Assembly (NCBI GenBank): GCA_000227505.4
Contig: AGIF02000001.1
Location: 888,035 to 952,034 of the forward strand
Reading direction: 5' to 3'
DNA length: 64,000 bases
Source: a gamma proteobacterium HIMB55
GTDB taxonomy: Bacteria; Pseudomonadota; Gammaproteobacteria; Pseudomonadales; Halieaceae
The position numbers and the translations under genes are program-made. The notes below the pieces were generated by a model. The model did no database searches and was not told the origin of the DNA. It saw nothing but the letters and a program-made list of their open reading frames with translations. Positions 4,875-23,087 of the stretch are shown piece by piece (the stretch's first letter is position 1; every line of letters starts with the position of its first letter).

Positions 4875-4902
4875 TACTTTCAGCCCTAGAGCACTATAAC
4901 TT

Positions 4903-4925
4903 GCTGAGCTCGCTCAGTTTCTCTT
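4903..4925 (+). terminator. Candidate terminator of the eno-nlpD operon
   Basis: A short hairpin, CTGAG/CTCAG with loop CTCG (4904-4917), is followed by a T-rich stretch TTTCTCTT. It lies 29 bases after the nlpD stop. The stem is only five base pairs, so this is a moderate call. Confidence 0.45.
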
Positions 4926-4948
4926 AAGAGGACAGGTGCGCCAAACGA

Positions 4949-4972
4949 CAGTGGAGCCGGACGGCTCCACTG
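4949..4972. terminator. Strong inverted repeat between convergent nlpD and fdxA
   Basis: A perfect 10-bp stem (CAGTGGAGCC with GGCTCCACTG) closes a GGAC loop. There is no T-run on either side. It sits between the convergent ends of nlpD (+) and fdxA (-), so it may stop or stabilise transcripts from both sides. Confidence 0.5.
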
Positions 4973-5004
4973 GAATGATACGTATTGTGCAAGGTATGGG
5001 TGGC

Positions 5005-5328
5005 TTAGCGCTCGAGCAGTGCGAGCTTCCCAGGCTTGCCTTCCCAGTCAGCCGCATCGGCAGGGGCGTCCTTCTTCTCAGTGATATTGGGCCAAATCTC
5101 CGCGAGCTCTGCGTTGAGCTCTAGGAAGTTTTCCTGATCAGCAGGAAGCTCATCTTCTGAGAAGATCGCGTCAATAGGGCACTCTGGTTCGCAAAGTGCG
5201 CAATCGATGCACTCATCGGGATGAATCACGAGGAAGTTAGGGCCCTCGTAAAAGCAGTCTACTGGACACACTTCTACACAGTCAGTGTGTTTACATTTAA
5301 TGCAGTCTTCGCCGACGACGAATGTCAT
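5005..5328 (-). CDS. fdxA: Seven-iron ferredoxin FdxA (3Fe-4S/4Fe-4S)
   Basis: A 107-residue low-potential electron carrier of the Azotobacter FdI type. Cysteines at 9, 12, 17, 21 and 25 ([17 protein letters not shown]) and at 40, 43, 46 and 50 ([12 protein letters not shown]) match the set that binds one 3Fe-4S and one 4Fe-4S cluster. The acidic C-terminal tail is typical of this group. A clear ribosome site (GGGGA) precedes the ATG. It lies 67 bases downstream of mutS on the same strand, a common gammaproteobacterial arrangement, and could be read through from mutS. The physiological partner is not visible here. Confidence 0.94.
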
Positions 5329-5395
5329 AGTACTTCCCCTAAATACCCGCTTTTTCAGTTAGTTATCGCGGTAAGTGTCAAAATAATAAGTCGAT

Positions 5396-7975
5396 CTATG
5401 TGTCTAGTAAAGTTTTCAGTGTATAAAGCGCATCCAGCGCCTCTTTTGGCGTCATCTGATCAGGATCGATGTCAGACAATACATCTAACGCTGGGCTTTT
5501 CTGAGTTGGCTCTGAGAACAAATCTGTTTGTCCACCGGAGTTCTCTCCTGGCTGCGAAACCTGCTGGCTTTCGAGCTCAGCGAGCTTCTGTCGAGCATGG
5601 AGTAAAACGCCACTGGGAACACCCGCTAGTTTAGCAACTTCCAGCCCAAAACTGCGATTAGCGGGTCCTTCTTGGATATGATGCATGAACACAACATGGT
5701 CTTCGTGCTCGGTTGCATCAAGGTGCACATTCGCCATGGCTGAGTGATCTTCAGGTAGCGCCGTCAGTTCGAAATAATGCGTTGCGAAAAAGGTGAGTGC
5801 TCTGACCCTCTCTGCTAGCGCTACAGCCGCTGCCCAGGCGATACTCAAACCATCAAACGTGCTCGTGCCGCGACCTACTTCATCCATCAACACCAAACTT
5901 CGGTCAGTGGCATTGTGGAGGATATTCGCGGTCTCAGTCATTTCAACCATGAATGTCGATAGCCCGCTTGCGAGGTCGTCCGATGACCCAATGCGCGTGA
6001 AAATACGATCAACCAGCGATAGGGTGGCGCTTTGCGCCGGCACGAAGGCACCGCAGTGCGCCAGCAGTGTGATAAGGGCGTTTTGGCGCATGTAGGTCGA
6101 TTTGCCGCCCATATTTGGACCGGTAATCAGCAGCATGCGACGCGTGTCATTAAGCAAGGTGTTGTTTGCGATGAAGGGTCGATCGCTCACTTGCTCAACG
6201 ACTGGGTGTCGGCCCCCAGTGATATCTAATTGCACCTCGTTGCTAAAGTTGGGTCGAGTCAGCGTCAGCGCATCAGCGCGCTCGGCAAAGCAAGCAAGCA
6301 CATCGAGATCACAAAGCGCGTTGGAGGTTCTTTGAAGTGCGATTAGATCCTCTGCTACTCGTTCAACGAGTGCGTCGTACAAGTGTTTCTCGCGGGCCAA
6401 GGCTCGGCTCCGGCTCGAGAGCGCTTTGTCCTCGAACTGCTTGAGCTCTGGCGTAATAAATCGCTCTACGTTCTTGAGTGTTTGCCGGCGTTGGTAGGTT
6501 TCAGGCGCCTGATCTGATTGCTGGCGGCTGATTTCGATGTAGTAGCCGTGAACCCTGTTATAGCCTACTTTTAAGGTTGAGAGACCTGTGGCCTCCCGCT
6601 CGCGCCGTTCGATATCAACGAGGTACTCCCCGGCGTTCTCACTAATACCACGCAGTTCGTCGAGTTCGTCGTCATAGCCGGCGGCGAGGACACCACCGTC
6701 TCTAATGACAACGGGTGGCGACTCGATAAGCGCTTTACTTAGTAGCTCACACAACGCCGGATACTCACCGATGTCAGCTACGAGCGCTTCGAGCTTCTCA
6801 GACGCTCGAGGAACTGCGGATACTAACGCAGGAAGCGCCCATAAACTGTCACGCAAGCGAGTAAGATCACGCGGACGCGCAGAGCGAAGGGCAACGCGTG
6901 CGAGGATACGCTCCATATCGGAAATAGGCTTGAGATGCTGTCGTGTTCCCTCGTAGTTGTAATTGCTTTTCAGTGCCTCAACGGCCTCAAGGCGCGCTTC
7001 CAACTCATCACGGATACGCACGGGGCGATGGAACCACCGCTTTAAGTGGCGGGTGCCCATGGCCGTAACTGTCGAGTTGTAGACCGAGAACAGTGTGTTG
7101 TCCTCGTTACCGTGGACATTCTTATCGATCTCGAGGTTACGACGGGTCGCTGCATCCAAGACGACAGCATCGCTCTGTCGCTCGTACCGAATCGCGACGA
7201 GGTGAGGCAACTCGTTTCGTTGCGTATCTTTCACATAGTCCAATAAAGCACCTGCGGCGGATACTGCAAGCACGAGATCCTCACAGCCAAATCCACTTAA
7301 ATCACGGGTTTGAAACTGTTGGTTGAGTGCTCGACGCGCACTTTCCTCATCAAACTGCCAAGCCGCGAGACGCCTGACCGCCACGTGATCGCCAAGTGCC
7401 GGGAGTGTCGCATCTTCTGCAACAAGCACCTCGGCAGGTGAGAGTCGCTGGAGTTCTGCCGCAAGTGCTTCTTCGCCCGCCATCTCTGACACTAGAAAGC
7501 GGCCGCTGCTCACATCCATCCAGGCGACACCGCAGTTCATTTGCTGCCGATAGACCGAAACGATCAGCGAGTCGCCGCTGGCGTCGAGCAAGGATTCGTC
7601 CGTGAGTGTGCCCGGTGTGACAATGCGCACCACTTTTCGCTCGACAGGCCCCTTGGATTCCGCTGGGTCACCAATTTGCTCAGCTATGGCTACTGAGAAA
7701 CCTGCGCGCACTAATCTTGCGAGATAGCTCTCAGCCGCATGAAACGGGACGCCTGCCATAGGAATCGGCTCGCCCGCTGACTTTCCACGAGAGGTCAACG
7801 TGATGTCGAGCACAGGCGCCGCTATCTCTGCATCTTTGTAGAAAAGCTCGTAAAAATCGCCCATCCGATAGAACAACAACTCGTCCGGATGCTCCGACTT
7901 GATCGCCAAAAACTGGCGCATCATGGGGGTATGCTGAGCAGAGGTGTGCTGGCTTGTATCTGATGCTGAAGACAT
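5396..7975 (-). CDS. mutS: DNA mismatch repair protein MutS
   Basis: MutS recognises base mismatches and small loops and recruits MutL. From the ATG at 7975 it has 859 residues, close to the usual 850-860. The N-terminal mismatch-binding domain has [11 protein letters not shown] (the Phe-X-Glu type motif), and the ATPase domain has the Walker [26 protein letters not shown] and [14 protein letters not shown] follow, with a helix-turn-helix and dimerisation tail. The frame stays open upstream to 8077, but the extra 34 residues do not look conserved, so the internal Met was chosen. It is divergent from the amidohydrolase gene and upstream of fdxA. Confidence 0.96.
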
Positions 7976-8168
7976 GAACGTCGGTCGGGCCAAAAACGCA
8001 AAGCGAGAGAATAGGTCAAAAGGCGCCTGCTTTAAATCCCGAAAGGCAATATCGACAAGGTTTCTTTCGAGCGTCAAAGCCCGAGTTAAAAGACCCTTTT
8101 GTGCGTCTAGCCATTGGGGTCAATAATCGCTATCGTCGCTGACAATTACAGTTATAAGTGGTGTCGCC

Positions 8169-9476
8169 ATGCTCAAATTTCATGCGCCTTTGAGCGCCTT
8201 CTTTTTCGTCTTTAGTTTTACCTCGGCGCAGCTTGTTTCTGCCGCAACAGTGATTCACGCAGGCCATCTTTTTGATACTGCGAGCGGCAAAGTACTCGAT
8301 AAGCAATCGGTTGTTATAGAGGCAGGGCGTGTCACCAATGTTGAGCCTGGTTTTATCGGTGGTGAGGAAGACGACATCATTGATCTGAGCGGTTCTTATG
8401 TGTCGCCTGGATTCATGGACATGCACGTGCACTTGGATGGTGAACTCAATCCACCGGCGAGCTACTCGGAAGAATTCTTCATGAACTCCGCTGACATTGC
8501 GTTGCGCTCGAGCATATTCGCTAAGCGCACCCTCGACGCGGGTTTTACAACTGTGCGCGATCTTGGGGCGGGCGACATTCAGGCAATCTTTGCGCTGCGA
8601 GATGCGATTGCAAAGGGGTATATCGACGGACCTCGGATTTTTGCAGCGGGTAAAGCTATGGCCACGACGGGCGGACACGCGGATCCTACAAACGGGATTC
8701 GGGCTGATTTACGAGGTGATCCCGGTCCAAAACAGGGTGTCATCAACGGCCCCGACGATGCTTACAAAGCTGTGCGTCAGCGATACAAGGACGGCAGTGA
8801 CGTCGTGAAGCTCACTGTGACAGGTGGCGTTCTCTCGCTCGCCAAGAGCGGGGATAACCCGCAGTTCACAGACACAGAGCTGGAGGCCGTGGTCAGCGCG
8901 GCGAAAGACTACGATTTTGTTGTGGCTGTCCATGCACACGGAGCGACGGGCATGAAGCGGGCGATTCGAGCAGGGGTGGATTCCGTTGAACATGGCACGT
9001 ATATGGACAGCGAGGCTATGCGGCTTATGCGTAAGCAGGGCACTTGGTACGTCCCTACAATCTCAGCGGGTAAGTGGGTGGGTGACCTCGCCGAGCTTGA
9101 TGACAAGCTACCCCCCGTTGTTCGTCCCAAGGCCGCTGCTATTGGCCCGCAGATTCAGGATACGTTCGGCGCAGCCTACAAGGCAGGTGTCAAGATCGCT
9201 TTTGGTACGGATGCCGGTGTCTCACCGCACGGTGCGAACGGTAAAGAATTTAGATTTATGGTTGAGGCAGGCATGCCCATCATGGAGACAATTCAAGCTG
9301 CGACTGTGAACGCCGCCATGCTACTTCGTGTAGAAGACGAGTTGGGTCAGATTGCGCCGGGCTTCCACGCCGATATCGTTGCTTTTGATAACAACCCGCT
9401 CGAAGATGTTACGGTTCTTGAGCGCCCCAATTTTGTGATGAAGGCGGGCTCGGTATTTCGGAATGACGGCGTATGA
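8169..9476 (+). CDS. Exported amidohydrolase (imidazolonepropionase/Xaa-Pro dipeptidase-like)
   Basis: A 435-residue metal-dependent hydrolase with an N-terminal signal peptide (about residues 1-25, ending VSAA), so probably periplasmic. It carries the amidohydrolase metal motif HVH (His86, His88 in MDMHVHLDGE), TGGHAD, a VKLTVTGG segment likely to hold the carbamylated metal-bridging lysine, VHAHG, VEHGTYMD and FGTDAGVSPHG with the catalytic aspartate. The closest family known to me hydrolyses dipeptides with C-terminal proline or basic residues; the exact substrate cannot be read from sequence. Its stop overlaps the start of the isoaspartyl peptidase gene by ATGA, so the two are made together. 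Confidence 0.85.
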   Translation: MLKFHAPLSAFFFVFSFTSAQLVSAATVIHAGHLFDTASGKVLDKQSVVIEAGRVTNVEPGFIGGEEDDIIDLSGSYVSPGFMDMHVHLDGELNPPASYSEEFFMNSADIALRSSIFAKRTLDAGFTTVRDLGAGDIQAIFALRDAIAKGYIDGPRIFAAGKAMATTGGHADPTNGIRADLRGDPGPKQGVINGPDDAYKAVRQRYKDGSDVVKLTVTGGVLSLAKSGDNPQFTDTELEAVVSAAKDYDFVVAVHAHGATGMKRAIRAGVDSVEHGTYMDSEAMRLMRKQGTWYVPTISAGKWVGDLAELDDKLPPVVRPKAAAIGPQIQDTFGAAYKAGVKIAFGTDAGVSPHGANGKEFRFMVEAGMPIMETIQAATVNAAMLLRVEDELGQIAPGFHADIVAFDNNPLEDVTVLERPNFVMKAGSVFRNDGV

Positions 9477-10462
9477 AAGCGTGGGTGTGTCTGTTAGCGG
9501 CGGTTCTGTTAACGCTACCCGTTAATGCGGAGGAGGCTCGAGTCGCGATAGCGTTGCACGGCGGTGCCGGCACGATCGAGCGCGCGCGAATGACGAGCGA
9601 GCAGGAACTCATATACCGTAAGTTTCTGGATGCTGCGATTGAAGAGGGCTACCGCCAGTTGAAAGCAGGTGAGCCGGGCTTAGATGTGGTGGTGAGCATC
9701 ATTCAGCGCATGGAGGATTCGCCGCTGTTCAACGCAGGTCACGGTTCGGTCTACACATGGGAAGGCCATCATGAGCTCGATGCGTCGATTATGGATGGCC
9801 GAGAGCTCGATGCAGGCGCAGTAGCTGGCGTTAGGACGGTTAAGTCACCTATTGCGCTGGCGCGTGCCGTTATGGAGCGCTCCCATCATGTGATGTTGGC
9901 GTCAGAGGGGGCTGAGCGATTTGCGGCTGAGCGAGGCTTTGAAAAAGTACCCGAGGGCTACTTCGACACCGAGCGTCGGCAAAAATCATTGAAGGCTTAT
10001 AAGCGCGCTCGACAGGCAGGTGTCACGACTAATCCCGATTACAAATACGGGACTGTTGGTGTTGCCGTCCTTGATAGCGAGGGTAATCTCGCAGCAGGCA
10101 CATCAACCGGCGGTATGACCGGCAAACGCTGGGGCCGGATCGGTGACGCGCCCGTCATTGGTGCAGGTACCTATGCGAACAATGCGTCTTGTGCCGTATC
10201 AGCCACGGGCCATGGTGAATACTTTATTCGGTATACCGTTGCGAGAGATATCTGCGCCCGTATGGAGCTCGCCGGTGAGACGCTGACTGAAGCAGCCAAC
10301 GTTGTTGTACATGACACGCTGGTGAAGGCAGGCGGCGACGGCGGGATCATCGCGGTTGATGCTGAAGGAAACGTTGCGCTCACGTTCAATACTCCGGGGA
10401 TGTACCGCGCGAGTATTAATGCGTCAGGTGAAAAGGTAATCGGCATTTTTGGCGACGACTGA
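9473..10462 (+). CDS. Exported isoaspartyl peptidase / plant-type L-asparaginase (Ntn hydrolase)
   Basis: This enzyme cleaves isoaspartyl dipeptides and L-asparagine. The 329-residue precursor has a signal peptide (residues 1-19, VNAEE). It is made as a proenzyme that cuts itself before the nucleophile Thr194 in YKYGTVGVAVLD. Other family motifs are ALHGGAGT, NAGHGSVYT, DASIMDG, GTSTGGMTGKR and SATGHGEYFIR. Many bacterial homologues are cytoplasmic, so the signal peptide suggests periplasmic scavenging. It is coupled to the amidohydrolase. Pcm, which repairs isoaspartate in proteins, lies nearby. The function of the pair in peptide nitrogen recycling is inferred. Confidence 0.92.
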   Translation: MKAWVCLLAAVLLTLPVNAEEARVAIALHGGAGTIERARMTSEQELIYRKFLDAAIEEGYRQLKAGEPGLDVVVSIIQRMEDSPLFNAGHGSVYTWEGHHELDASIMDGRELDAGAVAGVRTVKSPIALARAVMERSHHVMLASEGAERFAAERGFEKVPEGYFDTERRQKSLKAYKRARQAGVTTNPDYKYGTVGVAVLDSEGNLAAGTSTGGMTGKRWGRIGDAPVIGAGTYANNASCAVSATGHGEYFIRYTVARDICARMELAGETLTEAANVVVHDTLVKAGGDGGIIAVDAEGNVALTFNTPGMYRASINASGEKVIGIFGDD

Positions 10463-13879: not shown

Positions 13880-14256
13880 TCGGCTGTCTGGGTGTCCGTG
13901 ATGTCTGATTTTGCCGGAAGGTCTCCGTAGAGCCCTTCATAGCGGCGCTTTGCCCAGAATGCATAGACAGGGTCGACGATCTGCTTGATGACGGGCCAGC
14001 GTAACCACGCCCAGAGTGCACCGAAGCGTGTGTGTTGCCAGGCAGCGACGTTCGCATCCGCACCGACAACCCATTCCTCGCCACGTTTGAGATGCAGATT
14101 TAATAGAAGGTTTTCCTTACTCGGCATCTCATCGGTTATCTCAAGGCCGTGAATATCGACCAAGTCGAGGCTCTCACGCTTGAGCTTGGCGAGATGCTTC
14201 ATTTCTCGCGCACACAGCGGGCAGGCGCCATCGTAATAAAGCGTTTCTTTCGTCAT
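13876..14256 (-). CDS. DUF393 (DCC family) thiol-disulfide oxidoreductase-like protein
   Basis: A 126-residue protein with the family-defining start LYYDGACPLCAREM, giving DxxCxxC (Asp9, Cys12, Cys15). This is a thioredoxin-like redox motif. A conserved VVGADANVAAW segment in the middle and a Trp/Arg-rich stretch with YAFWAKRRY near the end also fit the family. The partner and substrate are unknown. It is upstream of and overlaps the flavin-reductase-like gene. A TlpA-like thioredoxin gene lies on the same strand just upstream, so three redox genes are grouped. Confidence 0.82.
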   Translation of the reverse strand: MTKETLYYDGACPLCAREMKHLAKLKRESLDLVDIHGLEITDEMPSKENLLLNLHLKRGEEWVVGADANVAAWQHTRFGALWAWLRWPVIKQIVDPVYAFWAKRRYEGLYGDLPAKSDITDTQTAE

Positions 14257-14320
14257 GGAAACTACCGGTCGTTAGAGTCCCACAATGCTAGACATCTAGG
14301 GGAATAAAAACTGCGCTTGC

Positions 14321-14851
14321 TCAACTCGCGTCCATTTCTGCGAGCATTTTTTTGATGCTCTCGGCGAGTTTCAGCTCATCACCCCGCTTGAATCCGATGT
14401 GTATCTCCCTTACGCGTCCTTCGGCGTCCAGTAGATAACCTGAAGGCATCCCATCGACCGCAAACATGCGGGCTATGTCGCCCTCAGTGTCAATAACAAC
14501 AGGATAATCAACGGAGTAGCGCTTCAAGAAATCCCAAGCATCCTCCTCAACGACATCGATACTGATCGCTAGAAATTGAACAGGCGCCTCAGCAAATTGC
14601 TCATTGAGGGAATTGAGGGCAGGGAGTGAAAGACGACAGGGACCACACCAAGACGCCCAAAAATCGACGTAGGTGATTTTTCCACGGAAGTCGGACATCG
14701 ACAGATTGCCCTCAGCGTTCTCAATCGCTGGAAGCGTCCAGTCGGGAGCCGGTATGGGAGGGTCGACGTTGACAACGGAGTTGCCACCTGCGCCGTGACT
14801 CGCGGTTGACAGTGTTAGAAGTATGCCGAGCAGTAGAGCACGTAGTTTCAT
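14321..14851 (-). CDS. TlpA-like exported thioredoxin-fold protein
   Basis: The start at 14851 was chosen because AAGGAG lies nine bases upstream and a signal peptide (about residues 1-21) follows; the frame is open further to 14932. The mature part is a thioredoxin-like domain with the WCGPC active site (Cys69, Cys72), the preceding YVDFWAS, and the cis-proline-type VDGMPSGYLLD loop. Proteins of this type reduce or exchange disulfides in the periplasm, for example in cytochrome c or envelope protein maturation. No specific client is evident, though the pilins encoded next door contain paired cysteines. Confidence 0.85.
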   Translation of the reverse strand: MKLRALLLGILLTLSTASHGAGGNSVVNVDPPIPAPDWTLPAIENAEGNLSMSDFRGKITYVDFWASWCGPCRLSLPALNSLNEQFAEAPVQFLAISIDVVEEDAWDFLKRYSVDYPVVIDTEGDIARMFAVDGMPSGYLLDAEGRVREIHIGFKRGDELKLAESIKKMLAEMDAS

Positions 14852-15160
14852 TAAATAAGACTCCTTAATGTTGCTTTCTACGGTCGTTAAAGCGGATTCG
14901 TTCAGCATCGTCCACACATTTTCGTTGTGCATATACTGATATTCGCGGGGTAGTGTAGCGGAGGTCTACCAGTGTTTTTGTTAAAAGGGTTTCATTTACC
15001 AAGAGGCTTATTAAGGTTGATTAAATGACGCCTTGTGAAGCCACGTTACGCGCCTATAAAAAGCCAATGACAGTGAAGTTTAAAGGCGCTACCTTTATCT
15101 TGTTACATACGCAGTGTGCTTTTGTGATGAAGTTTTAGTTTTCGCCGTTGGGGGTAGGTA
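14852..15160. other. Intergenic region between tlpA-like gene and pilin gene
   Basis: About 310 bases with no credible coding sequence. It must hold the divergent promoters. A weak -35/-10 pair on the plus strand can be drawn in the last 60 bases (TTGTTA, 17 bases, TGTGAT), and a small hairpin AAAGG/CCTTT lies near 15080. I see no sigma-54 type site, tRNA or small RNA. A G-rich ribosome site precedes the pilin ATG. Confidence 0.4.
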
Positions 15161-15586
15161 ATGGCTTTTAGCAAGAGTCGTCAACAAGGCATGACGCTTT
15201 TAGAACTCATGATTGTGATTGCCATAATAGGTATCTTGGCGAGCGTTGCTATTCCGTCTTTTAACGATTCTGTGATCAAGGCAAGACGGGCAGATGCGCG
15301 TAACTCGCTCTTTGATTGGCAATTACGCGAAGAAGGGTATTTTGCCGATAATATGAGCTACGCCAGCGTATCAACGATTAATGGCAGCGGCGCCGACACC
15401 GTGGACTCTAGCGAGGGCTATTACGACATTACGGTAGTAAGCTCTAGTGCGACAGCTTTTCAGTTAACGGCCACGCCAAAGTCAGGAACGACACAAGCTG
15501 GTGATAGTGACTGCGCCAGTTATTTTTGCATTAATCAAGACGGTCCACTGTACTCGGGTAGTTGCGCTCCTCAAACGTGCTGGTGA
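15161..15586 (+). CDS. PilE-like type IV pilin
   Basis: A 141-residue type IV prepilin. The leader is MAFSKSRQQG, cleaved before Met11, followed by MTLLELMIVIAIIGILASVAIP with Glu at mature position 5 and the long hydrophobic assembly helix. The next segment, RADARNSLFDWQLREEGYFADN, is typical of PilE-type minor pilins. Four cysteines lie in the last 26 residues, likely forming the D-region disulfide. Short length and sequence suggest a minor rather than the major pilin. It lies apart from, and convergent with, the other minor-pilin genes at 16.5-19.5 kb; in Pseudomonas these genes form one operon. Confidence 0.88.
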   Translation: MAFSKSRQQGMTLLELMIVIAIIGILASVAIPSFNDSVIKARRADARNSLFDWQLREEGYFADNMSYASVSTINGSGADTVDSSEGYYDITVVSSSATAFQLTATPKSGTTQAGDSDCASYFCINQDGPLYSGSCAPQTCW

Positions 15587-15663
15587 TGCTTAATCAGGCC
15601 ACATTTTTTGAATAGATCAGAGGTAACTGGGCTCGCCGAAACCGGTCATGGGAAAAGGTCGTT

Positions 15664-16426
15664 ATGGTAAACATCACCGTTAACCCAGAATCCTTCCCTC
15701 AAAAGCTGAGCTGGTACCTGTGGTTAGTTTGTTGTGGGTTGGTCATCTGCGATTCCGTACTCACGTTTCACGATATTACGGGCTACTACGTTTTCAATCG
15801 CGTTTTCGATATGACGAGAGAGGAGAGCATCCCCAACTGGTATGCCTCGATACTTTTATTCTGTATTGCGCTTACTTGCGCAATGACCTATGCGATTCAA
15901 AGACGTCGTGTAGAAGAGCAAGATGCGGTCCCATGGTTGTTGTTTGCCGGCTTTTTTCACCTTTCTTTCGATGGATGACGGGGCAAAGATTCATGAGCGC
16001 CTAGGCAGTTTTTTCCGAGAGCTTGCCGAGGAGGGCGACGGCGTTTTCACTGTTTTTCAGCCCGTGCTGGAGGCAGCATCTACTTACTCGTGGCAAATAT
16101 TCGTATTACCGGTTTTTCTGTTCTTCGCGTTTTTTATTTTGCTGTGGGGCTTCAACAATATTTCGGTGCGTGAAACACACCGATGGATACTGTTGGGTGG
16201 ATTTTTTATCGCGATTGGTTTGGGTCTCGATTATTTCGAGGGGCTTGTTGATAACGGGGTAATCGACCTCGAGGGCAGGCCTTTATCAGTGAATACCATA
16301 GAGCACTATCAGCGCGTCCTCGAGGAATTTTTGGAAATGACGGGTTTCATATGCATTTTACGTGGATTGTGGGTAAACCTTATGAGTTTGGAGTCGCAAA
16401 TACGTCTGTCGCTACACAGGTCCTAG
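15664..16426 (+). pseudogene. Multi-pass membrane protein with a single-base frameshift
   Basis: Two reading frames form one protein. Frame one runs from the ATG at 15664 (AAGG ribosome site) through helices LVCCGLVICDSVLTF and ASILLFCIALTCAMTY to WLLFAGFF. It then fails at a run of six T (15952-15957) and stops at 15976-15978. Frame two continues with TFLSMDDGAKIHERLGSFF, then WQIFVLPVFLFFAFFILLWGF and WILLGGFFIAIGLGLDYF, ending at 16426. Removing one T gives an uninterrupted 253-residue protein with four or more helices. The joined motif LSMDDGAKIHERLG is typical of a family of uncharacterised membrane proteins. It could be a true pseudogene, a sequencing error or a slippage site. Confidence 0.75.
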
Positions 16427-16500
16427 CGTAACTTCTGCACCCAAGCCAAGCGATATGGTCCGAATATGACGGATGCGCCATGTTGGTGGCTCTATTGTTT

Positions 16501-17523
16501 CTAACTACTGCTGCTACTGCTGCTACTGCTGCTGCTACTACTGCTACTGCTCCCTCCACTGCTCGAGTTACAGCTTTTACTGCTGACACCACTGTTGTTG
16601 CTGTTGCTACTGCTACTGCCACCACCGTTCTTGTCCCATGATGGACCTCGCGTGCACTGGCTCGCGTCGCTGGTTAGCTGAATATAGAATTTTTGCTTAT
16701 AGTCGCTAGCGGTCAAATTGAAGGTGACCGAGCACATCCCGGAGCTTGCTGTGCCATTACCCGTGCAGTACATATTGGTTGGGTTTAACGTGACAACGGC
16801 TGTTGTGTTTTGCGAGATCTTATCGCGCTTACATTTTGCTTTGGAGTCACGACTATTTTTCCTTTCAAAATCGCAAAAAGAAGTGGATACCGTCGCAACG
16901 AACTGTCCATTGTTGGGGCAAGTCATGTCGGTGCCGTAGATTTTCAATTCTGCTTTTTTACCCTTGCTACCCCAAGACGCACTGCTACTGCTACTGCTAT
17001 TGCTACCGCTTCCGCTTCCGCCACCACCGGTATAAGCCACAGTGGTACAGGCAGGGATCGAATCGTCGGTACCCATGAATACTGATAGGGCCTCGTTGCT
17101 GCCTGCAATAGCGGTCTTTAGGGCGATTTTGTTAGTGCCATCTAGAATCGCGTAGTTACCGCTAGTCTTAATCGACAGTTTTGCCCCGTCCTGTTCATAC
17201 ATCGCTTTTAGCGCTGTGAGCTTGGCCTTGTCTGCATCAAGTAGTCTTTGCCGATCAACAGTACGCCCCGCCTCGTTATTGGCTGTCGTTAGGTTGAAGC
17301 TTTCGCCGTCAGCGTATCTATCATGTCTAGCCTTCTCTATAGACGCGACGTTTTCAGAGAGCATTGCGACCCTCGCATCTCCCTTCGTCTTAGACTTGAT
17401 GGTATCTGTGGCAACTGTCAGACCCGTCACGACGACTACCGACAGCGCGGCGGACGCAAAGAGCGTCTCGATCAAACTCATGCCTCTGACGTACTTTAAA
17501 TACCGCTGGATATGTCTGCTCAT
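16501..17523 (-). CDS. Large atypical type IV pilin-like protein with poly-serine tail
   Basis: The start at 17523 follows a GGAG ribosome site and gives 340 residues; the frame stays open a further 17 codons upstream. The prepilin leader ends RG, cleaved before Met15, and MSLIETLFASAALSVVVVTGLTVA follows with Glu at mature position 5. This looks PilV-like. The rest is unusual: a helical region (about 35-110), a Gly/Ser tract (about residues 165-185), a Cys-rich beta-looking domain (about 190-300), another Ser/Asn-rich stretch and finally 16 consecutive serines up to the stop codon. It is the last gene of the fimT-pilW-pilX-like operon, a place where pilY1 might be expected. I do not recognise the central domain. 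Confidence 0.75.
   Translation of the reverse strand: MSRHIQRYLKYVRGMSLIETLFASAALSVVVVTGLTVATDTIKSKTKGDARVAMLSENVASIEKARHDRYADGESFNLTTANNEAGRTVDRQRLLDADKAKLTALKAMYEQDGAKLSIKTSGNYAILDGTNKIALKTAIAGSNEALSVFMGTDDSIPACTTVAYTGGGGSGSGSNSSSSSSASWGSKGKKAELKIYGTDMTCPNNGQFVATVSTSFCDFERKNSRDSKAKCKRDKISQNTTAVVTLNPTNMYCTGNGTASSGMCSVTFNLTASDYKQKFYIQLTSDASQCTRGPSWDKNGGGSSSSNSNNSGVSSKSCNSSSGGSSSSSSSSSSSSSSSS
16504..16551. repeat. AGC/AGT trinucleotide microsatellite encoding 16 serines
   Basis: Read on the minus strand, 16 consecutive AGY codons run straight into a TAG stop. Shorter AGY-rich stretches occur in the same gene near 16593-16620 and 16978-17012. Repeats of three bases keep the frame when they change copy number, so tract length could vary between strains without inactivating the gene. 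Confidence 0.85.
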
Positions 17524-17537
17524 TGAATAAACTCCTA

Positions 17538-18191
17538 TTAAGGGAGGGCACAGGGCGCCAAGCGATCGGTCCAAGTGGCGGGCAACAAATATACGGCGTT
17601 TGTGCTGTCTACTTCGACACTTACTATTTGCGATACTGTTGCTGAGGCTAGACGATAGAGAGCTGTAGCGTAAACTCGATACAAGTAACGAGTTTCGCTA
17701 CCTATGGTTGTGCCACCGAGTGGCTCAGCTCGATAACTCGCGGTGGCTTCAAGATCTGTATCAATCACCACATTGTTGAGCGAAATCTCGAAGCAGTTTG
17801 ACTGCGTATCGAGGCCACCTCGATTTTCCATGTCCGTAACTGCGTCTTGCAGTGCTACCTCTGCTGCATACAAAGATGTTGTTAATGCTTGTGAGTAGCC
17901 CGCTGATCGATAATTGTCGACCGTTGCAATGATCATATTCCTCGTCGCAAACAGCGATAAGATCGCGAGTATGCTCACAACAGCAGTTGTCACGTAACCT
18001 TGAGAAGAGTAGGTGGTGGGGCGACTGGTTTTTGCGTTGTATGGCGCATGTTTGAAATTTAAGGGTCCAATTATCTGAGTCTCGACACCCTCTCGAGGAT
18101 CGTCTTTTCCCGTTTTTGTGGAGACTCGTTGGATGACTGGAAAGTTCTTATTTCCCGCCATGTCGTTGTTCGCTGAATCCGAGGACATCAC
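17538..18191 (-). CDS. PilX-like minor pilin assembly protein
   Basis: A 217-residue protein with one transmembrane helix at about 67-85 (VTTAVVSILAILSLFATRN), preceded by SSQG, a plausible prepilin-type boundary at Gly65. The following SAGYSQALTTSLYAAEVALQDAV matches the PilX N-terminal pattern (AAEAALRDA in relatives). The usual Glu at mature position 5 is missing, as is common in PilX. The N-terminal extension of about 65 polar residues before the helix is far longer than a normal leader. The gene overlaps pilW by four bases, and its order fimT-pilW-pilX supports the call. Confidence 0.75.
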   Translation of the reverse strand: MMSSDSANNDMAGNKNFPVIQRVSTKTGKDDPREGVETQIIGPLNFKHAPYNAKTSRPTTYSSQGYVTTAVVSILAILSLFATRNMIIATVDNYRSAGYSQALTTSLYAAEVALQDAVTDMENRGGLDTQSNCFEISLNNVVIDTDLEATASYRAEPLGGTTIGSETRYLYRVYATALYRLASATVSQIVSVEVDSTNAVYLLPATWTDRLAPCALP

Positions 18192-18946
18192 GGCGTGGCT
18201 CCGGTCAAGAGCGGGTTTCGTGGTGTCACTAATGTCTGGCTAAAGTAGGCTGAGGTGGTGTCGTCGCAGGTCGCAGCACTGGAGCTTGGCGGCAGCGCGC
18301 AAAGCTCCAACTGCCACAATTGTTCAATAAGACAGTTGTTTGCCCGGCTTGAGTTGTAACAATCTGCTTCGGTTAAGGCGGAAAGTGTCGGGCTATCGGC
18401 ATTAACGAACGCATCACTACCGTCTTGCGTCACTTTTAGAGACTTAAACGCTAAAACATCAGATACGGTAAGATCAGACCAGGTGCCGGTATTGCAGGCC
18501 ACGCTAGTTCCTCTCGTTGATTGGACCGTGTCGTTACTAATTCTAAAACCGTACTGATAGTAGGCCTCATTTATGGTCGATGGATTGGCGCCGGTAGCGG
18601 TGCCTATCTCTACAATGACGCAGTCAAGTGATGTGTCTGGATGAACCGCCGCCGCATAGGCCGCTGCCGTGGGACTTGACGAATTACTGTAGCCTCCCGT
18701 CGTCGTCAGGTGCGTCGTTACATTTGACAGTGAACCTAAATAACCCGACTCCCTTATCGCGGAGCTGACGATGTGCTCGGTGGTTGCAAACTGTTGTGTT
18801 CTGAGTGCACTGGTCTGCGCATTTAGGGTTGTCCGGTAGGTAATGGTGTAATGCGTGGCTGCAGCAAGGACGATAAAGCTACTGACCGCCAATGACACCA
18901 TAAGCTCCGTAAGGGTGAGGCCTGTTTGTCTCGTCGATATCAACAT
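18188..18946 (-). CDS. PilW-like minor pilin
   Basis: A 252-residue prepilin with leader MLISTRQTG, cleaved before Leu10, then LTLTELMVSLAVSSFIVLAAATHY with Glu at mature position 5. The sequence after the helix (QTSALRTQQFATTEHIVSSAIRESGYLGS) is PilW-like. Paired cysteines occur near the C terminus (DCYNSSRANNCLIEQLWQLELC). Minor pilins of this kind form the priming complex at the pilus tip. It overlaps both neighbours: the fimT-like stop lies within its start region, and it ends in an ATGA overlap with the pilX-like gene. Confidence 0.82.
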   Translation of the reverse strand: MLISTRQTGLTLTELMVSLAVSSFIVLAAATHYTITYRTTLNAQTSALRTQQFATTEHIVSSAIRESGYLGSLSNVTTHLTTTGGYSNSSSPTAAAYAAAVHPDTSLDCVIVEIGTATGANPSTINEAYYQYGFRISNDTVQSTRGTSVACNTGTWSDLTVSDVLAFKSLKVTQDGSDAFVNADSPTLSALTEADCYNSSRANNCLIEQLWQLELCALPPSSSAATCDDTTSAYFSQTLVTPRNPLLTGATP

Positions 18947-19443
18947 GCGGCACTCGAGTCTAATGCTCCAATACTCCAGATGCCGGTGGTGCTATGACTA
19001 ATAGTGACCATGCCAACCGAATTGCAAAAACCAATACTCCCCGTCGTAGCGTCGGTAAATTGCCGGAGGTTCGCCTGCGACAAAGAAAGCTCTGCGGGGT
19101 TAAAGGAGGTTGATAGCTCAATGCCATTGGCAAATTCGGCGTAGCTTCTCGATAATTCATTTGTGCCATCTGCTTCAAGGTCTTTCTCGACTGACCACTG
19201 ATCGCCTGTCGTAAATGCAATGGTTGCGATCCCCGTAGCGCCCATGGCAAGTACATCCCTCTGAGCCTGTCTGAGGTCCGTGACAATCGTCTCCACCACA
19301 AGGCGAAGCCGCGCTTGTTCGATGGAGCTGGTAAACGATGGGACGGCGATGCTTGCCAGAATCGCAATAATGGCAACGACCACCATCAGCTCTAAAAGCG
19401 TAAAGCCTCGTTGATTTGTATCGACTAAAGCGTCTCTTTTCAT
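18940..19443 (-). CDS. FimT/GspH-like minor pseudopilin
   Basis: The product of the ATG at 19443 is 167 residues. The leader ends QRG, and FTLLELMVVVAIIAILASIAVPSF follows with Glu at mature position 5. The next helix, RLRLVVETIVTDLRQAQRDVLAMG, is the FimT/GspH signature. Two cysteines near the C terminus (FCNS and AAC at the end) may pair. The frame remains open to a TTG at 19500, but neither start has a good ribosome site; the ATG gives a leader of normal length. It is the first gene of the minor-pilin operon, upstream of pilW and pilX. Confidence 0.8.
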   Translation of the reverse strand: MKRDALVDTNQRGFTLLELMVVVAIIAILASIAVPSFTSSIEQARLRLVVETIVTDLRQAQRDVLAMGATGIATIAFTTGDQWSVEKDLEADGTNELSRSYAEFANGIELSTSFNPAELSLSQANLRQFTDATTGSIGFCNSVGMVTISHSTTGIWSIGALDSSAAC

Positions 19444-19561
19444 CCGCGCACGCACTGATCGAAGATGTACAAAGTGTGTCTGTTTATGCCGCAGAAGCAA
19501 GCAAACGGTGTCAAAAATGTGACGTTTGCGATGGTTTCAGTGCCCTTTAAGGGTTTTAGGC

Positions 19562-21724
19562 TTAGTTGGCTGAGCGGGTCTTGCTCCGTATTGCAATCAT
19601 CTGATTAAACGCAGCACCCGCTATGTCGTGTGCCGGCTTGATATAGGGCGCTGTGGTTACGTGGTCGTAGTGATGCCGCATGGCAGGATTCGCTTCAAAA
19701 ATGACGAGCGTCCCGTCGGGGTCAACAGCAAAGTCGACGCCGCAAAAGTCGAGGCCTATTTCAGCCATGAAGTCGAGTAATGCGGTGTGGTTGGTTGCAC
19801 CCAGATAGTCAGGTAAATCATTCAGACAATGAGCTTCGTCCTCTCGCATCCACGACTGTTCATGCATGATTTTCAGCCGATCGCCGCGCCGTCCTACCTC
19901 CCAATGCTCGCCTCGCAGCAAGTGGATAGGGTAGAGGTCTCCGTCGATGTAAAAGGCACGTATTTTTTGGAATACGCCTGAATCGTCCGCGACGTCAATA
20001 AACTCTGTCACATAGAGGTCTCTCATTTTAGACAGGCCTTGCAGCGCATTCCGCAAACTCTTTTCGTTGTCACACTTACTCAATGTCGATCCCGTGTGTG
20101 TGCCGACGGACCTTACGAGGAGCGGATACCTTAAATCAGATAAAATTTGCCTGGTGAGCGTCGGTATATCCAATAGAGCCATACCAGAGTAGCGCTGTGT
20201 TTTTCCTGATCGCAAATGAGTCGAGACATTGGCAAGTCTCGCAATCGAATCGCGCGTTGTCCGCCTGAGTGCATCCGGACGATTGATAACGTTTTCGATA
20301 CCATTGTTTGCGATAAAGGCCTCCAGCCCCATGAGTGCATTAGGGGACGCGTCGATATCGCTGATGGCATTAAAAAGTACATCAAAATGGGGTGCCTGAG
20401 CCTCGGCAAAGATGTGATTTGCAGCGTTACCAAGCGTGATGTGGAAGCGCTCCTTGTCAATCCAATATTTTGTCGATATTTGCCCACCTACCAACCGGGT
20501 TTTGACGCTGCCGTCGTCAGCGAATCGGAATTTCACTTTGGTTCCTTCAAAGGCGCGAACTTTCAAGACCACGGGTTTTATATGTTGCCGGCTTTTCTTG
20601 AGGAAGGGGCGAGAAGCGGCGGCGCTGGCCAAAACCTGCGCCGCTTTAGAATCTTCCTCTCGTCTGGTCGCAAGTGCACTCAAAAAATACGGCACATCAA
20701 AACTATCCTCGTTTTTTTGTGCCATTTGCTCGAGCGTTTGTTGAGCTTCGCTGAATTTTTTCTCCCTTAAGGCCTTTCTTACATCAGCCATCGACGTTGC
20801 CAAGCCCGAGGGTGCGAGATTTAAAGGCTTGGACTCAGACTTTGCACTCGCCGTCATATCTCCAAATAGCTCCTTGTCGCTCCTTAAAATACGTGCCTGG
20901 GTTTTGCGGCCTTGTTCTTCAAGACGAGATGCGGCACGAATTAGGCGTTCGGTAATACTAGGCGTCAGTGACCGCTCGGGTATGAGGGCTTGGCTGCAGG
21001 TAGCGAAATCTGCTCTCAACCGATAGCGGATCATCAACCGGTTACTTTCTTCAGCCAACGCAGTGCGGCCGTGAAGCACCTTATGATTATTGATCAGTAG
21101 CGTTTCACCCTTCTCTAGACGAAACGAGCGCTTCGCGGCGAGACGAGTAATGGTCGCGTCGAAGGCCGATAAGGCAGCGTACTGCTGCTGTGACAGTGAG
21201 GCGCCAAGCTCGAGACTGCGCTCCAGCTGTTTACGGTAATAACTGATGCGAGTTTCATCCGAATCGGGGCGGGTCTCTACAATGGGCTTCGGCTGTTTAC
21301 CCAAGGGCCAGACGGGTTGGCGCAGAAGGTCGGTTGTATCGCTGTCGAGCGACGCTATAAGCTCATCGACAACCACCATTTGCGTCTCGCCACCCATTTC
21401 ATCGGGCCGAGACATACCAAAAATAACAATAGAATGCGGATGGTTTTGTTGACTAGAGTCGGTGTGAGGCTCCAATGCAATTGTGGTGCGACTGTAGCGT
21501 GTAACAGCATCTTCGACGGAGGAGGCTTTCGGGTTGACAGTTACCCGCGTGGCACCCAGCCGAGAGGGGAGGTCTAAACTACTCGATCCGATGCATTCCA
21601 ATGCAAAGGCGATGGCGCTGGCCTCTTGCCATGAGGCGTGACCCGTAGCTGGCGGCATGACCACGTAATAGGGGAAAGTGGTTAGAGCAGTCAGCATTTC
21701 CCGTGATTTTGCGAGAACGTCCAT
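19562..21724 (-). CDS. Fusion of TauD/TfdA-like Fe(II)/2-oxoglutarate dioxygenase, TPR-like segment and ATP-grasp ligase
   Basis: A 720-residue cytoplasmic-looking protein with three parts. Residues 1-240 resemble TauD/TfdA or clavaminate-synthase-like dioxygenases: His87-x-Asp89 (LEPHTDS) and His218 (NNHKVLHGR) form the iron-binding triad, and arginines at 220-235 could hold 2-oxoglutarate. Residues 310-375 are helical and TPR-like. Residues 380-720 look like an ATP-grasp ligase: a pre-ATP-grasp region with VINRPDALRRTTRD, a glycine-rich loop RSVGTHTG (538-545), YVTEFIDV, and the Mg-binding FEANPAM (Glu677, Asn679). The combination suggests hydroxylation of an amino acid or peptide followed by ATP-dependent ligation. 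The substrate is unknown. It lies directly upstream of the minor-pilin operon on the same strand, with a 118-base gap to the TTG. Confidence 0.8.
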   Translation of the reverse strand: MDVLAKSREMLTALTTFPYYVVMPPATGHASWQEASAIAFALECIGSSSLDLPSRLGATRVTVNPKASSVEDAVTRYSRTTIALEPHTDSSQQNHPHSIVIFGMSRPDEMGGETQMVVVDELIASLDSDTTDLLRQPVWPLGKQPKPIVETRPDSDETRISYYRKQLERSLELGASLSQQQYAALSAFDATITRLAAKRSFRLEKGETLLINNHKVLHGRTALAEESNRLMIRYRLRADFATCSQALIPERSLTPSITERLIRAASRLEEQGRKTQARILRSDKELFGDMTASAKSESKPLNLAPSGLATSMADVRKALREKKFSEAQQTLEQMAQKNEDSFDVPYFLSALATRREEDSKAAQVLASAAASRPFLKKSRQHIKPVVLKVRAFEGTKVKFRFADDGSVKTRLVGGQISTKYWIDKERFHITLGNAANHIFAEAQAPHFDVLFNAISDIDASPNALMGLEAFIANNGIENVINRPDALRRTTRDSIARLANVSTHLRSGKTQRYSGMALLDIPTLTRQILSDLRYPLLVRSVGTHTGSTLSKCDNEKSLRNALQGLSKMRDLYVTEFIDVADDSGVFQKIRAFYIDGDLYPIHLLRGEHWEVGRRGDRLKIMHEQSWMREDEAHCLNDLPDYLGATNHTALLDFMAEIGLDFCGVDFAVDPDGTLVIFEANPAMRHHYDHVTTAPYIKPAHDIAGAAFNQMIAIRSKTRSAN

Positions 21725-21842
21725 GCCTTTAGCCTAGCCCAGGCTTAACGCAATTTGTATAGATCGTTTTCACCTAGGGCCGACGCTATGCGCGCCTTTT
21801 AGAATTTGCAGCGACAAACGTGACGGCCATAAAGAAGGCCAC

Positions 21843-21872
21843 AAAAAAGCCGGCGTCTTACGAGGCCGGCTT
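21843..21872 (-). terminator. Rho-independent terminator of the HMG-CoA reductase gene
   Basis: On the minus strand AAGCCGGC (21872-21865), a ten-base loop and GCCGGCTT are followed by a run of six T (plus-strand A at 21843-21848). It lies 19 bases beyond the reductase stop codon. Confidence 0.85.
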
Positions 21873-21890
21873 CTCGATCAGTTACATGCC

Positions 21891-23087
21891 TTACCGGTTA
21901 CGCCCCAACCTCTCGTGCGCATCAACCCACTCGTTAGTACGCGTTGCCTTGTCGACACGCGTTGCCGCCGCGAGCGACAACTCACCCGCAACCACAAGAC
22001 CTGCCGCAATTTCACAGAGCTTGAGCGCCCGGTCTTTGCCGAAGCAATCCATCATCTCTAAGCACTCGCGCTGTGTTGGCAGGTTCGTACCTCCGCCGTA
22101 GCTCGCCATGATGATCGAGGGCAGGGTGATCGAGAAATAGTGATCACCCTCACGTGTCATACGCTGATAAACGGTGCACTGATTGGACTCGCCAATGTTG
22201 GCAAGGTCTTGACCGGTCGCTGCATACAAGGCCGCCAAGCCGTTAGCGGGGTGGCTTGCGTTGTTCGAGCTTGAGGTCGTAAGTGCAGACAACGTGGTGA
22301 TTTGATAGCCGTACTGCATCTGCTCGGGCGTAATGCGCAGGTTATCCATCAGTACCTTGCGAGGGATGGTGACCTCAGCGGTGACGCGTCGGCCACGGCC
22401 TTTGAGCATATTGACTGCAGAGGTCTTCTTTTCCGTATCCCAGTTGCCTGACAGCATGTAGTTCTTAAGTGCGCCTGGGTAGTTCTTACGAATCCACTCA
22501 CAGGCAAAGAACGTGGCGCGGCTGGTCATATTCTGACCGGCAGCATCACCGGTTGAGTAGTCGAAACGGCAGGCGACAAAGTTGTGGGTATGGTAGTTCT
22601 CGATTTCGAGAAGCTTACCCACGGACGTCGTGCTTTCAGCCTGTCCTTTGATAGCCTCGAAGTTGGCTCGGAGCCAGAGCTGAAAATCACGAGCTTCGCG
22701 GGCGTCATTGAAAATGAACAGCGGAGCGCGTTGCATAGACTCAGCAGACACGGTGGTCTTAACGCCACCCGACTCGCGAATCACCTTCATTCCGCGGTTG
22801 TAGCTCGCGAGCATGGTGCCCTCTACGGTCGCCATGGGTACGAAGAACTCGCCCTTGGCATACTCACCGTCTACTAACAGCGGACCGGCAATACCGATCG
22901 GTATCTGAGAAACACCCCAAATATTCTCGATGTTTCCGGACATAACATGCGGGTCATACGAGAACTGCTTGGTGTGGTTTAACTTGGCACCGGTCTGAGC
23001 TTCGATGAACGCTTGACGTTCAGCGATGATTTCCGGGCTGTAATCGTCCTCGCGCGAGCGCGGGATCCGTGCGCGTTCGTCGCTCAT
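21891..23087 (-). CDS. Hydroxymethylglutaryl-CoA reductase, class I type
   Basis: The family reduces HMG-CoA to mevalonate with two NAD(P)H. The 398-residue protein is a soluble catalytic domain without membrane anchor. All catalytic positions are present: Glu89 (ATVEGTMLAS), Lys220/Lys221 (SGNWDTEKKTSAVN, matching the eukaryotic GNYCTDKKPAA), Asp294 (ATGQDLAN) and a C-terminal His391 (DAHERLGRNR). ENIWGVSQIPIGIAGP and GGGTNLPTQ are also diagnostic. The alignment with the human-type sequence, including the GRG segment and ASHPANGLAALYAATGQD, favours class I over class II. It is unexpected beside the MEP genes ispD and ispF. It follows the nitronate-monooxygenase-like gene by two bases. Confidence 0.9.
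   Translation of the reverse strand: MSDERARIPRSREDDYSPEIIAERQAFIEAQTGAKLNHTKQFSYDPHVMSGNIENIWGVSQIPIGIAGPLLVDGEYAKGEFFVPMATVEGTMLASYNRGMKVIRESGGVKTTVSAESMQRAPLFIFNDAREARDFQLWLRANFEAIKGQAESTTSVGKLLEIENYHTHNFVACRFDYSTGDAAGQNMTSRATFFACEWIRKNYPGALKNYMLSGNWDTEKKTSAVNMLKGRGRRVTAEVTIPRKVLMDNLRITPEQMQYGYQITTLSALTTSSSNNASHPANGLAALYAATGQDLANIGESNQCTVYQRMTREGDHYFSITLPSIIMASYGGGTNLPTQRECLEMMDCFGKDRALKLCEIAAGLVVAGELSLAAATRVDKATRTNEWVDAHERLGRNR

What the first reader, a model, noticed from the sequence alone, without database searches (positions are those of the whole stretch)
19562..21724. Three-part enzyme: Fe(II)/2OG dioxygenase + TPR-like + ATP-grasp ligase in one chain
The N-terminal third has a complete iron triad (His87, Asp89, His218). 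The C-terminal half has an ATP-grasp glycine-rich loop and metal-binding Glu677/Asn679. Both halves look intact. The fusion implies consecutive hydroxylation and ATP-dependent ligation of an amino acid or peptide, as in small peptide or RiPP-like biosynthesis. No such pathway with this architecture is known to me. The gene is upstream of, and on the same strand as, the atypical minor-pilin operon. The substrate could be a metabolite or a pilin terminus; the latter is only inference.
Basis: partly seen in the sequence, partly recalled or inferred. Interest (0 to 1): 0.78.

Follow-up and report, generated by a model that had tools for sequence, protein, structure and literature searches.

The report
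Fused dioxygenase-TPR-ligase enzyme beside pilins
A marine bacterium carries one long enzyme that joins an iron-dependent oxygenase, a peptide-binding repeat and an ATP-driven ligase; distant relatives of it sit beside genes for exported or surface proteins and peptides, often with runs of aspartate, so it probably makes an unstudied chemical modification on such proteins.

Summary
ORF 19562-21724 (minus strand, 720 aa, genus Luminiphilus) is an intact fusion: a TauD/clavaminate-synthase-like Fe(II)/2OG oxygenase, a short TPR, and a RimK/LysX-like ATP-grasp ligase. The structure model is confident, and every catalytic residue is invariant across homologues. It is no assembly error: full-length fusions occur in three Luminiphilus species, about 13 cyanobacteria and an alphaproteobacterium, and adjacent split genes occur in both orders. 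Relatives beyond the genus lie near RTX metalloprotease/lectins, two-partner secretion, C39-ABC/HlyD exporters and small Asp/Gly-rich peptides. Gly-Asp5 sites are rare in these genomes, yet in 9 of 11 testable fusion genomes one lies within about 8 kb of the fusion. In Luminiphilus the intact gene accompanies one type of minor-pilin operon, and both decay together. No Asp-run target was found there; the best candidate is PilV, whose Ser/Gly tail was seen only in fusion genomes. Best reading: a peptide/protein-modifying enzyme (hydroxylation plus amide ligation) for exported proteins. The chemistry and the Luminiphilus substrate remain inferred. The nearest characterised concept is corallotide CorB/CorC (ATP-grasp plus 2OG oxygenase complex). 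The pilin-substrate idea is plausible, not shown.

The parts
19562..21724 (-). Fusion gene, 720 aa: TauD-like oxygenase + TPR + RimK-like ATP-grasp
20990..21724 (-). Residues 1-245: Fe(II)/2OG oxygenase domain; Fe ligands H87 (21464-21466), D89 (21458-21460), H218 (21071-21073); invariant R229/R233/R235
20600..20977 (-). Residues 250-375: helical TPR region (residues 295-306 low confidence)
   Evidence: Pfam TPR_19 weak; family profile matches OGT/SPINDLY and designed TPRs; helical in model
19565..20581 (-). Residues 382-720: RimK/LysX-like ATP-grasp domain; K587, R589, D664, E677 (19694-19696), N679 (19688-19690), signature E-x-N-x-A-M-R-H-x3-H
21842..21872 (-). Likely terminator of the upstream HMGR gene (8-bp GC-rich stem, 10-nt loop, T run), suggesting that the fusion has its own promoter
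   Evidence: read directly from sequence; missed by the scan, whose loop limit is 8
18940..19500 (-). FimT/GspH-like minor pilin, directly downstream of the fusion
18188..18946 (-). PilW-like minor pilin; close orthologues (81-82%) only in the intact-fusion genomes
17538..18191 (-). PilX-like protein
16501..17574 (-). PilV-like pilin with Ser/Gly-rich C-terminal tail; candidate substrate
   Evidence: inference
16504..16629 (-). Ser/Gly/Asn tail of PilV (residues about 316-357), present in window and G247, absent from the PilV of five non-fusion relatives examined

Best explanation
The gene encodes a cytoplasmic bifunctional peptide/protein-modifying enzyme. The TPR holds an exported protein or peptide before secretion. 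The TauD domain hydroxylates an amino acid, either the free building block, as AsnO/KDO1/VioC do, or a residue of the bound peptide. The RimK/LysX-like ATP-grasp domain activates a carboxylate with ATP and forms an amide bond, decorating or cross-linking a low-complexity segment of the target. In cyanobacterial and alphaproteobacterial relatives the target is probably a Gly-Asp(5+) segment of exported peptides, RTX/lectin metalloproteases or a Tad pilus protein. In Luminiphilus it is most likely a minor pilin of the adjoining operon, PilV first. Shown: domain architecture, invariant active sites, fusion/split conservation, linkage to exported proteins and Asp runs, co-decay with the pilin operon. 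Inferred: the reactions, their order, the bond formed and the Luminiphilus substrate.
For: Domains and residues. Confident models and fold matches to amino-acid hydroxylases and to RimK/LysX/ArgX, which add amino acids to protein C-termini (what LysX and RimK do is established knowledge). Fused and split forms in both gene orders. In L211 a peptide-ABC-HlyD-fusion run, all on one strand with gaps under 80 bp; in L152 a peptide-C39 ABC-HlyD run beside the fusion; in L137 and L144 the peptide lies upstream of the fusion. Gly-Asp5 DNA sites are rare; one lies near the fusion in 9 of 11 genomes with enough flank, and in 4 of them it is the genome's only site (naive Poisson-binomial P about 6e-21 for 9 of 11, about 6e-10 for at least 5 of 11). 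Luminiphilus: pilin type and intact fusion co-occur in 3 of 3; both are gone or decaying in G252 and G256. Purifying selection on both catalytic domains (dN 0.11 and 0.16 against G247, dS near or beyond saturation).
Against: No Gly-Asp5 segment in an ORF near the Luminiphilus gene. In some fusion genomes D5-bearing proteins lie elsewhere, and one has no site at all. The Asp-run motif was chosen after seeing the loci. PilV tails are low complexity, and a PilV without the fusion is also Ser/Lys-rich internally (G248). Relatives without TauD sit with metabolite enzymes (PEP mutase, PLP decarboxylase). AsnO/KDO1/VioC act on free amino acids, not on peptides (established knowledge).
Confidence: 0.55

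Rival explanations
1. Small-molecule synthetase: TauD hydroxylates a free amino acid (or an aminophosphonate) and ATP-grasp joins it to another small acid, giving a dipeptide-like metabolite; the TPR is only a linker and the neighbours are incidental.
For: The best TauD fold matches are free-amino-acid hydroxylases and the best sequence hits include TmpA/GBBH. TauD-less TPR-ATP-grasp relatives sit beside PEP mutase/TPP decarboxylase (Kordiimonas) or PLP decarboxylase genes.
Against: Asp-run peptides/proteins and exporters beside the fused forms; presence and decay together with a pilin operon; no further recognisable biosynthetic genes in a run with the Luminiphilus gene.
Confidence: 0.2
2. 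Graspetide-like maturase: ATP-grasp makes intramolecular Asp-Lys/Ser amide or ester rings in the peptide and TauD hydroxylates the product, as CorB/CorC do for corallotide.
For: Precursors in L137, L144 and L152 have a leader-like N-terminus, and L144, L152 and L211 have Asp-rich/Lys-rich cores; an ATP-grasp/2OG pair that co-purifies is known (PMC13097080).
Against: Graspetide-synthetase models score 15-21 bits against cut-offs of 350-475. No graspetide synthetase among the best 50 folds. The RTX targets have one Asp run rather than a repeated core.
Confidence: 0.12
3. Passenger gene: the fusion was carried into Luminiphilus together with the pilin operon as one cassette and has no functional tie to the pilins.
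For: The locus is variable in the genus (inverted divergent pilin operon, PilA only, or nothing); the fusion evolves faster than its neighbours (54% identity in G276 against 81% for PilW).
Against: Active sites and purifying selection retained; decay of the gene coincides with absence of the operon; distant relatives also sit with surface proteins.
Confidence: 0.13

Closest known systems
Corallotide CorB (graspetide synthetase) + CorC (2OG oxygenase), PMC13097080
   Same: ATP-grasp ligase and Fe(II)/2OG oxygenase act on one ribosomal peptide and form a complex; precursor with repeated Lys/Asp motifs
   Different: Separate proteins; a true graspetide synthetase, unlike this RimK-like one; no TPR or TauD named in the paper (term search); product is an Asp-Lys isopeptide then Lys delta-hydroxylation
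RimK and LysX/ArgX ATP-grasp ligases
   Same: Among the best fold and HMM matches; metal-binding D/E/N; ligases that attach amino acids to the C-terminal carboxylate of a protein (S6, LysW)
   Different: 33 bits against a rimK_fam cut-off of 143; own signature E-x-N-x-A-M-R-H-x3-H; fused to TPR and TauD
Clavaminate-synthase-like hydroxylases (AsnO, KDO1, VioC) and TmpA/GBBH
   Same: TauD fold, HxD...H triad, sequence profile hits
   Different: Stand-alone enzymes on free small molecules; here fused to or adjacent to a TPR-ATP-grasp
AspH (TPR + 2OG oxygenase) and OGT/SPINDLY (TPR + transferase)
   Same: TPR next to a catalytic domain that modifies proteins; AspH hydroxylates Asp/Asn residues (PMC6817910)
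   Different: Different oxygenase type in AspH; no ATP-grasp in any of them (established knowledge)

Membership tests
Fe(II)/2OG oxygenase, TauD family | Profile above Pfam cut-off | tested here: met
   61.4 bits against 27
Fe(II)/2OG oxygenase, TauD family | HxD...H iron triad and a 2OG-binding Arg conserved | tested here: met
   H87/D89/H218 and R229/R233/R235 invariant; which Arg binds 2OG was not tested
Fe(II)/2OG oxygenase, TauD family | 2OG- and Fe-dependent turnover | not testable with these tools
   needs enzymology
RimK family (TIGR00768) | Score above curated cut-off | tested here: not met
   33 bits against 143.4; 33 of 35 relatives match at E up to 0.1: related, not a member
ATP-grasp superfamily | Fold and metal-binding Asp/Glu/Asn | tested here: met
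   pTM 0.88 model, Foldseek to RimK/LysX/Ddl; D664/E677/N679 35 of 35
Graspetide synthetase (TIGR04184/04185/04187) | Score above curated cut-off | tested here: not met
   15.8/15.3/20.6 bits against 475/425/350
RiPP pathway | Short precursor gene with leader and core beside the modifying enzyme | tested here: inconclusive
   Candidate precursors beside relatives L137, L144, L152, L211; none recognised beside the window gene
TPR domain | TPR profile match and helical hairpins | tested here: met
   Family profile matches OGT/CTPR chains; the window protein alone is below the Pfam cut-off, 19.8 against 25 bits

The most novel reading that the evidence does not exclude
A new bacterial post-translational modification class: a single TauD-TPR-ATP-grasp enzyme installs a hydroxylated, amide-linked group on Asp-run or Ser/Gly-rich segments of exported proteins and peptides (pili, RTX/lectin proteins, T1SS-type peptides), shared by cyanobacteria, alphaproteobacteria and marine gammaproteobacteria.
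Probability: 0.35. Interest if true: 0.85.

Novelty: new variant of a known kind. Interest (0 to 1): 0.7.

Why it matters
No paper in the searched library describes this architecture. The relatives come with an unusually clear candidate substrate mark (Gly-Asp5), sometimes the only such site in the genome and next to the enzyme, so an unknown modification of surface proteins and exported peptides becomes directly testable by mass spectrometry, with peptide, exporter and enzyme in one operon in one case (L211).

Tried and rejected
Assembly artefact: rejected (fusion in a single-contig relative G247, in G276, in the isolate genome of Mastigocoleus testarum, and in many others). Recently acquired foreign gene by composition: no signal (GC 0.52, GC3 0.55, like neighbours). 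Operon with upstream HMGR: unlikely (terminator-like hairpin between them). Asp-run peptide hidden in the window or elsewhere in the Luminiphilus genome: none found. Small ORF at 16380-16625: only an alternative frame of the PilV Ser tail. Mixed alignment A1 as query for genome contigs: too diverse. Independent new cyanobacterial fusion genomes as a held-out test: the class search returned the same contigs for all fused forms. Second fusion copy of the alphaproteobacterium: no Asp4 protein within its 20-kb stretch. PDB relatives of the ATP-grasp by sequence: none. Plasmids: only distant ATP-grasp halves. Model coordinates are not readable here, so active-site geometry was not measured. The split genes (ATP-grasp then TauD) in Leptolyngbya/Halomicronema have no conserved neighbours or Asp-run peptide in the loci read.

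Full report
OBSERVATION. The ORF 19562-21724 is on the minus strand, 720 codons, ATG start. Pfam finds TauD at 75-233 (61 bits), TPR_19 weakly at 318-373 and RimK/ATP-grasp weakly at 530-596; NCBIfam finds rimK_fam at E 3.5e-7. In an alignment of 42 family members, H87/D89/H218 and R229/R233/R235 are invariant in the TauD domains (the few other letters in the H87 and D89 columns I take to be misaligned residues of rows that lack TauD; the TauD-only alignment has none), and K587/R589/D664/E677/N679 plus a signature E-x-N-x-A-M-R-H-x3-H are invariant in all 35 ATP-grasp rows. AlphaFold2 gives mean pLDDT 89 for the chain (pTM 0.62: domain arrangement unsure) and pLDDT 90/pTM 0.88 for the ATP-grasp half. 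Foldseek against the PDB gives asparagine oxygenase AsnO, lysine 3-hydroxylase KDO1, VioC and gamma-butyrobetaine hydroxylase for the first domain, and D-Ala-D-Ala ligase, LysX/ArgX and RimK for the last. A family profile recognises the TPR segment in OGT, SPINDLY and designed TPR chains.

NOT AN ARTEFACT. The genome is one 2.74-Mb contig of the genus Luminiphilus (record title of L133, which is the same 6349-base contig as G276:C178). Full-length fusions at 75% and 54% identity are in G247 (single contig) and G276. Beyond the genus the whole chain recurs at about 30% identity in cyanobacteria (Mastigocoleus, Xenococcaceae, Nostocaceae, Rivularia, Richelia, Leptolyngbyaceae, Oculatellaceae, Cyanothece) and in an alphaproteobacterium that has two copies. 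The same two proteins occur as adjacent genes, ATP-grasp then TauD in Leptolyngbya/Halomicronema and TauD then ATP-grasp in alphaproteobacteria, which is Rosetta-stone evidence that the parts work together. A tree of the ATP-grasp domain puts the Luminiphilus trio on a long branch apart from the other fusions (the fusion label needs 3 changes; well-supported branches force at least 2), so fusion may have happened more than once. TPR-ATP-grasp proteins without TauD are widespread in Pseudomonadota.

LUMINIPHILUS CONTEXT. The gene lies downstream of an HMG-CoA reductase gene, separated by a probable terminator, and about 60 bp upstream of FimT-PilW-PilX-PilV on the same strand. Only 5 of 57 genus genomes have any trace of it. 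In the other genomes examined at this locus there is a divergent pilin operon in the opposite orientation, only PilA, or nothing between HMGR and TlpA. The window-type PilW (81-82%) is in exactly the three intact-fusion genomes. In G252 the reading frame has a stop near residue 82 and most of the ATP-grasp domain is missing; in G256 only residues about 7-125 remain; in both, the pilin operon is absent from the locus. These two are draft genomes, so sequencing error cannot be wholly excluded. dN against G247 is 0.11 (TauD) and 0.16 (ATP-grasp), with dS 1.8 for TauD and not computable (saturated) for ATP-grasp: purifying selection, with a faster linker/TPR (dN 0.37). PilV of the window and of G247 carries a Ser/Gly-rich C-terminal tail that PilV of G259, G272, G263, G250 and G293 lacks; G248 PilV, without a fusion, is Ser/Lys-rich internally.

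CONTEXT OF RELATIVES. Neighbours of cyanobacterial and alphaproteobacterial fusions are often exported proteins: RTX metalloproteases with C-type lectin domains, TPS secretion proteins with ShlB-type transporters, C39-ABC and HlyD exporters, and small Asp/Gly-rich peptides. L211 is a one-strand run: peptide (4181-4510), ABC (4588-6339), HlyD (6314-7885), fusion (7914-10217). L152 has peptide, C39-ABC and HlyD in one run convergent with the fusion; its ABC has a C39 domain, that of L211 does not. In L137 and L144 the peptide lies about 220 and 600 bp upstream of the fusion. The peptides have a leader-like N-terminus in L137, L144 and L152, and units such as GGDDDDDGGRGKKGG are repeated in L211. 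DNA sites that could code Gly-Asp5 are rare: 0-5 per genome of 4-13 Mb except where they repeat in tandem in one gene. In 9 of the 11 fusion genomes that have enough flanking sequence, one lies within about 8 kb of the fusion; in G1051, G1348, G1266 and G1350 it is the only one. A naive Poisson-binomial gives P about 6e-21, and at least 5 of 11 gives about 6e-10. The motif was chosen after inspection, and the five RTX-type cases are one orthologous neighbourhood, so I count about five independent cases. In the alphaproteobacterium a further Gly-Asp5 site, about 10 kb away, is in a Tad pilus protein. In cyanobacteria whose fusion contig is short or lacks a near site, Asp5-bearing RTX proteins and small secreted proteins exist elsewhere in the genome. 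Split-pair genomes show no such adjacency in the loci read.

TauD-less relatives give a contrary hint: Kordiimonas-type loci have PEP mutase and a TPP-dependent decarboxylase, others a PLP decarboxylase or class-V aminotransferase, i.e. enzymes that could supply an amine; others again lie beside giant RTX proteins, and Solemya symbiont loci beside porins, one with a TauD gene in the run. One unifying reading is that the ATP-grasp attaches an amine building block, made or trimmed by the accessory enzyme, to carboxylates of surface proteins; this is inference.

MECHANISM. Most likely (0.55) the enzyme modifies exported peptides/proteins: TPR-bound substrate, hydroxylation by the TauD domain, ATP-dependent amide formation by the ATP-grasp domain. 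Whether the TauD acts on a free amino acid, as its closest folds do, or on a residue is open. Rivals: small-molecule synthetase (0.20), passenger gene (0.13), graspetide-type ring formation (0.12). Luminiphilus itself has a single Asp5-Gly DNA site in the genome and it lies in no listed ORF, so the Asp-run target does not carry over; PilV is only the best candidate.

KNOWN SYSTEMS. Corallotide biosynthesis pairs a graspetide synthetase with a 2OG oxygenase that binds and activates it (PMC13097080), the nearest functional precedent; but graspetide models are far from met here. RimK/LysX are among the nearest folds but the RimK cut-off is not met. The graspetide survey PMC8939145 mentions TPR proteins encoded near some ATP-grasp genes and does not mention TauD or hydroxylase. 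No held paper was found that describes the fusion; absence from this library is not proof of absence.

VERDICT. A real, conserved, uncharacterised enzyme architecture with intact active sites and an unusually strong neighbour signal in relatives. New variant of a known kind (ATP-grasp plus oxygenase peptide/protein modification).

Noticed in passing
L211 4181-4510 (+); L152 13694-13930 (-); L144 7073-7315 (+); L137 7369-7668 (+): Small Asp/Gly-rich peptides without Pfam match, in L211 with repeated GGDDDDDGGRGKKG units; those of L152 and L211 start a run with ABC and HlyD exporter genes.
   Followed up: partly
L249, L250, L267, L236: A family of small signal-peptide-like proteins (122-138 aa) in Xenococcaceae with a Tyr...Gly-Asp5+...Tyr segment; no Pfam match for L249 and L236.
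   Followed up: no
L155, L157, L159, L160, L162, L163, L169: Kordiimonas-type TPR-ATP-grasp gene beside a PEP mutase and a TPP-dependent decarboxylase-like gene (Pfam-confirmed in L159 only) and an aminotransferase-like gene: possible aminophosphonate ligation system.
   Followed up: no
L180 6661-11245 (+): Solemya velum symbiont: porin, two ATP-grasp genes of this family and a TauD gene in one run.
   Followed up: partly
window 14000-21900 and L113-L132: The HMGR-TlpA interval is a variable pilin locus in Luminiphilus: operon in either orientation, PilA only, or empty.
   Followed up: partly
window 16380-16625 (-): ORF of Ala/Val repeats is an alternative frame of the PilV poly-Ser tail (AGC/AGT repeats), a possible slippage hotspot.
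   Followed up: partly
L136 10255-10656 (+); L211 10312-11097 (+): Glyoxalase/bleomycin-resistance-fold gene directly downstream of the fusion in a cyanobacterium and in an alphaproteobacterium.
   Followed up: no
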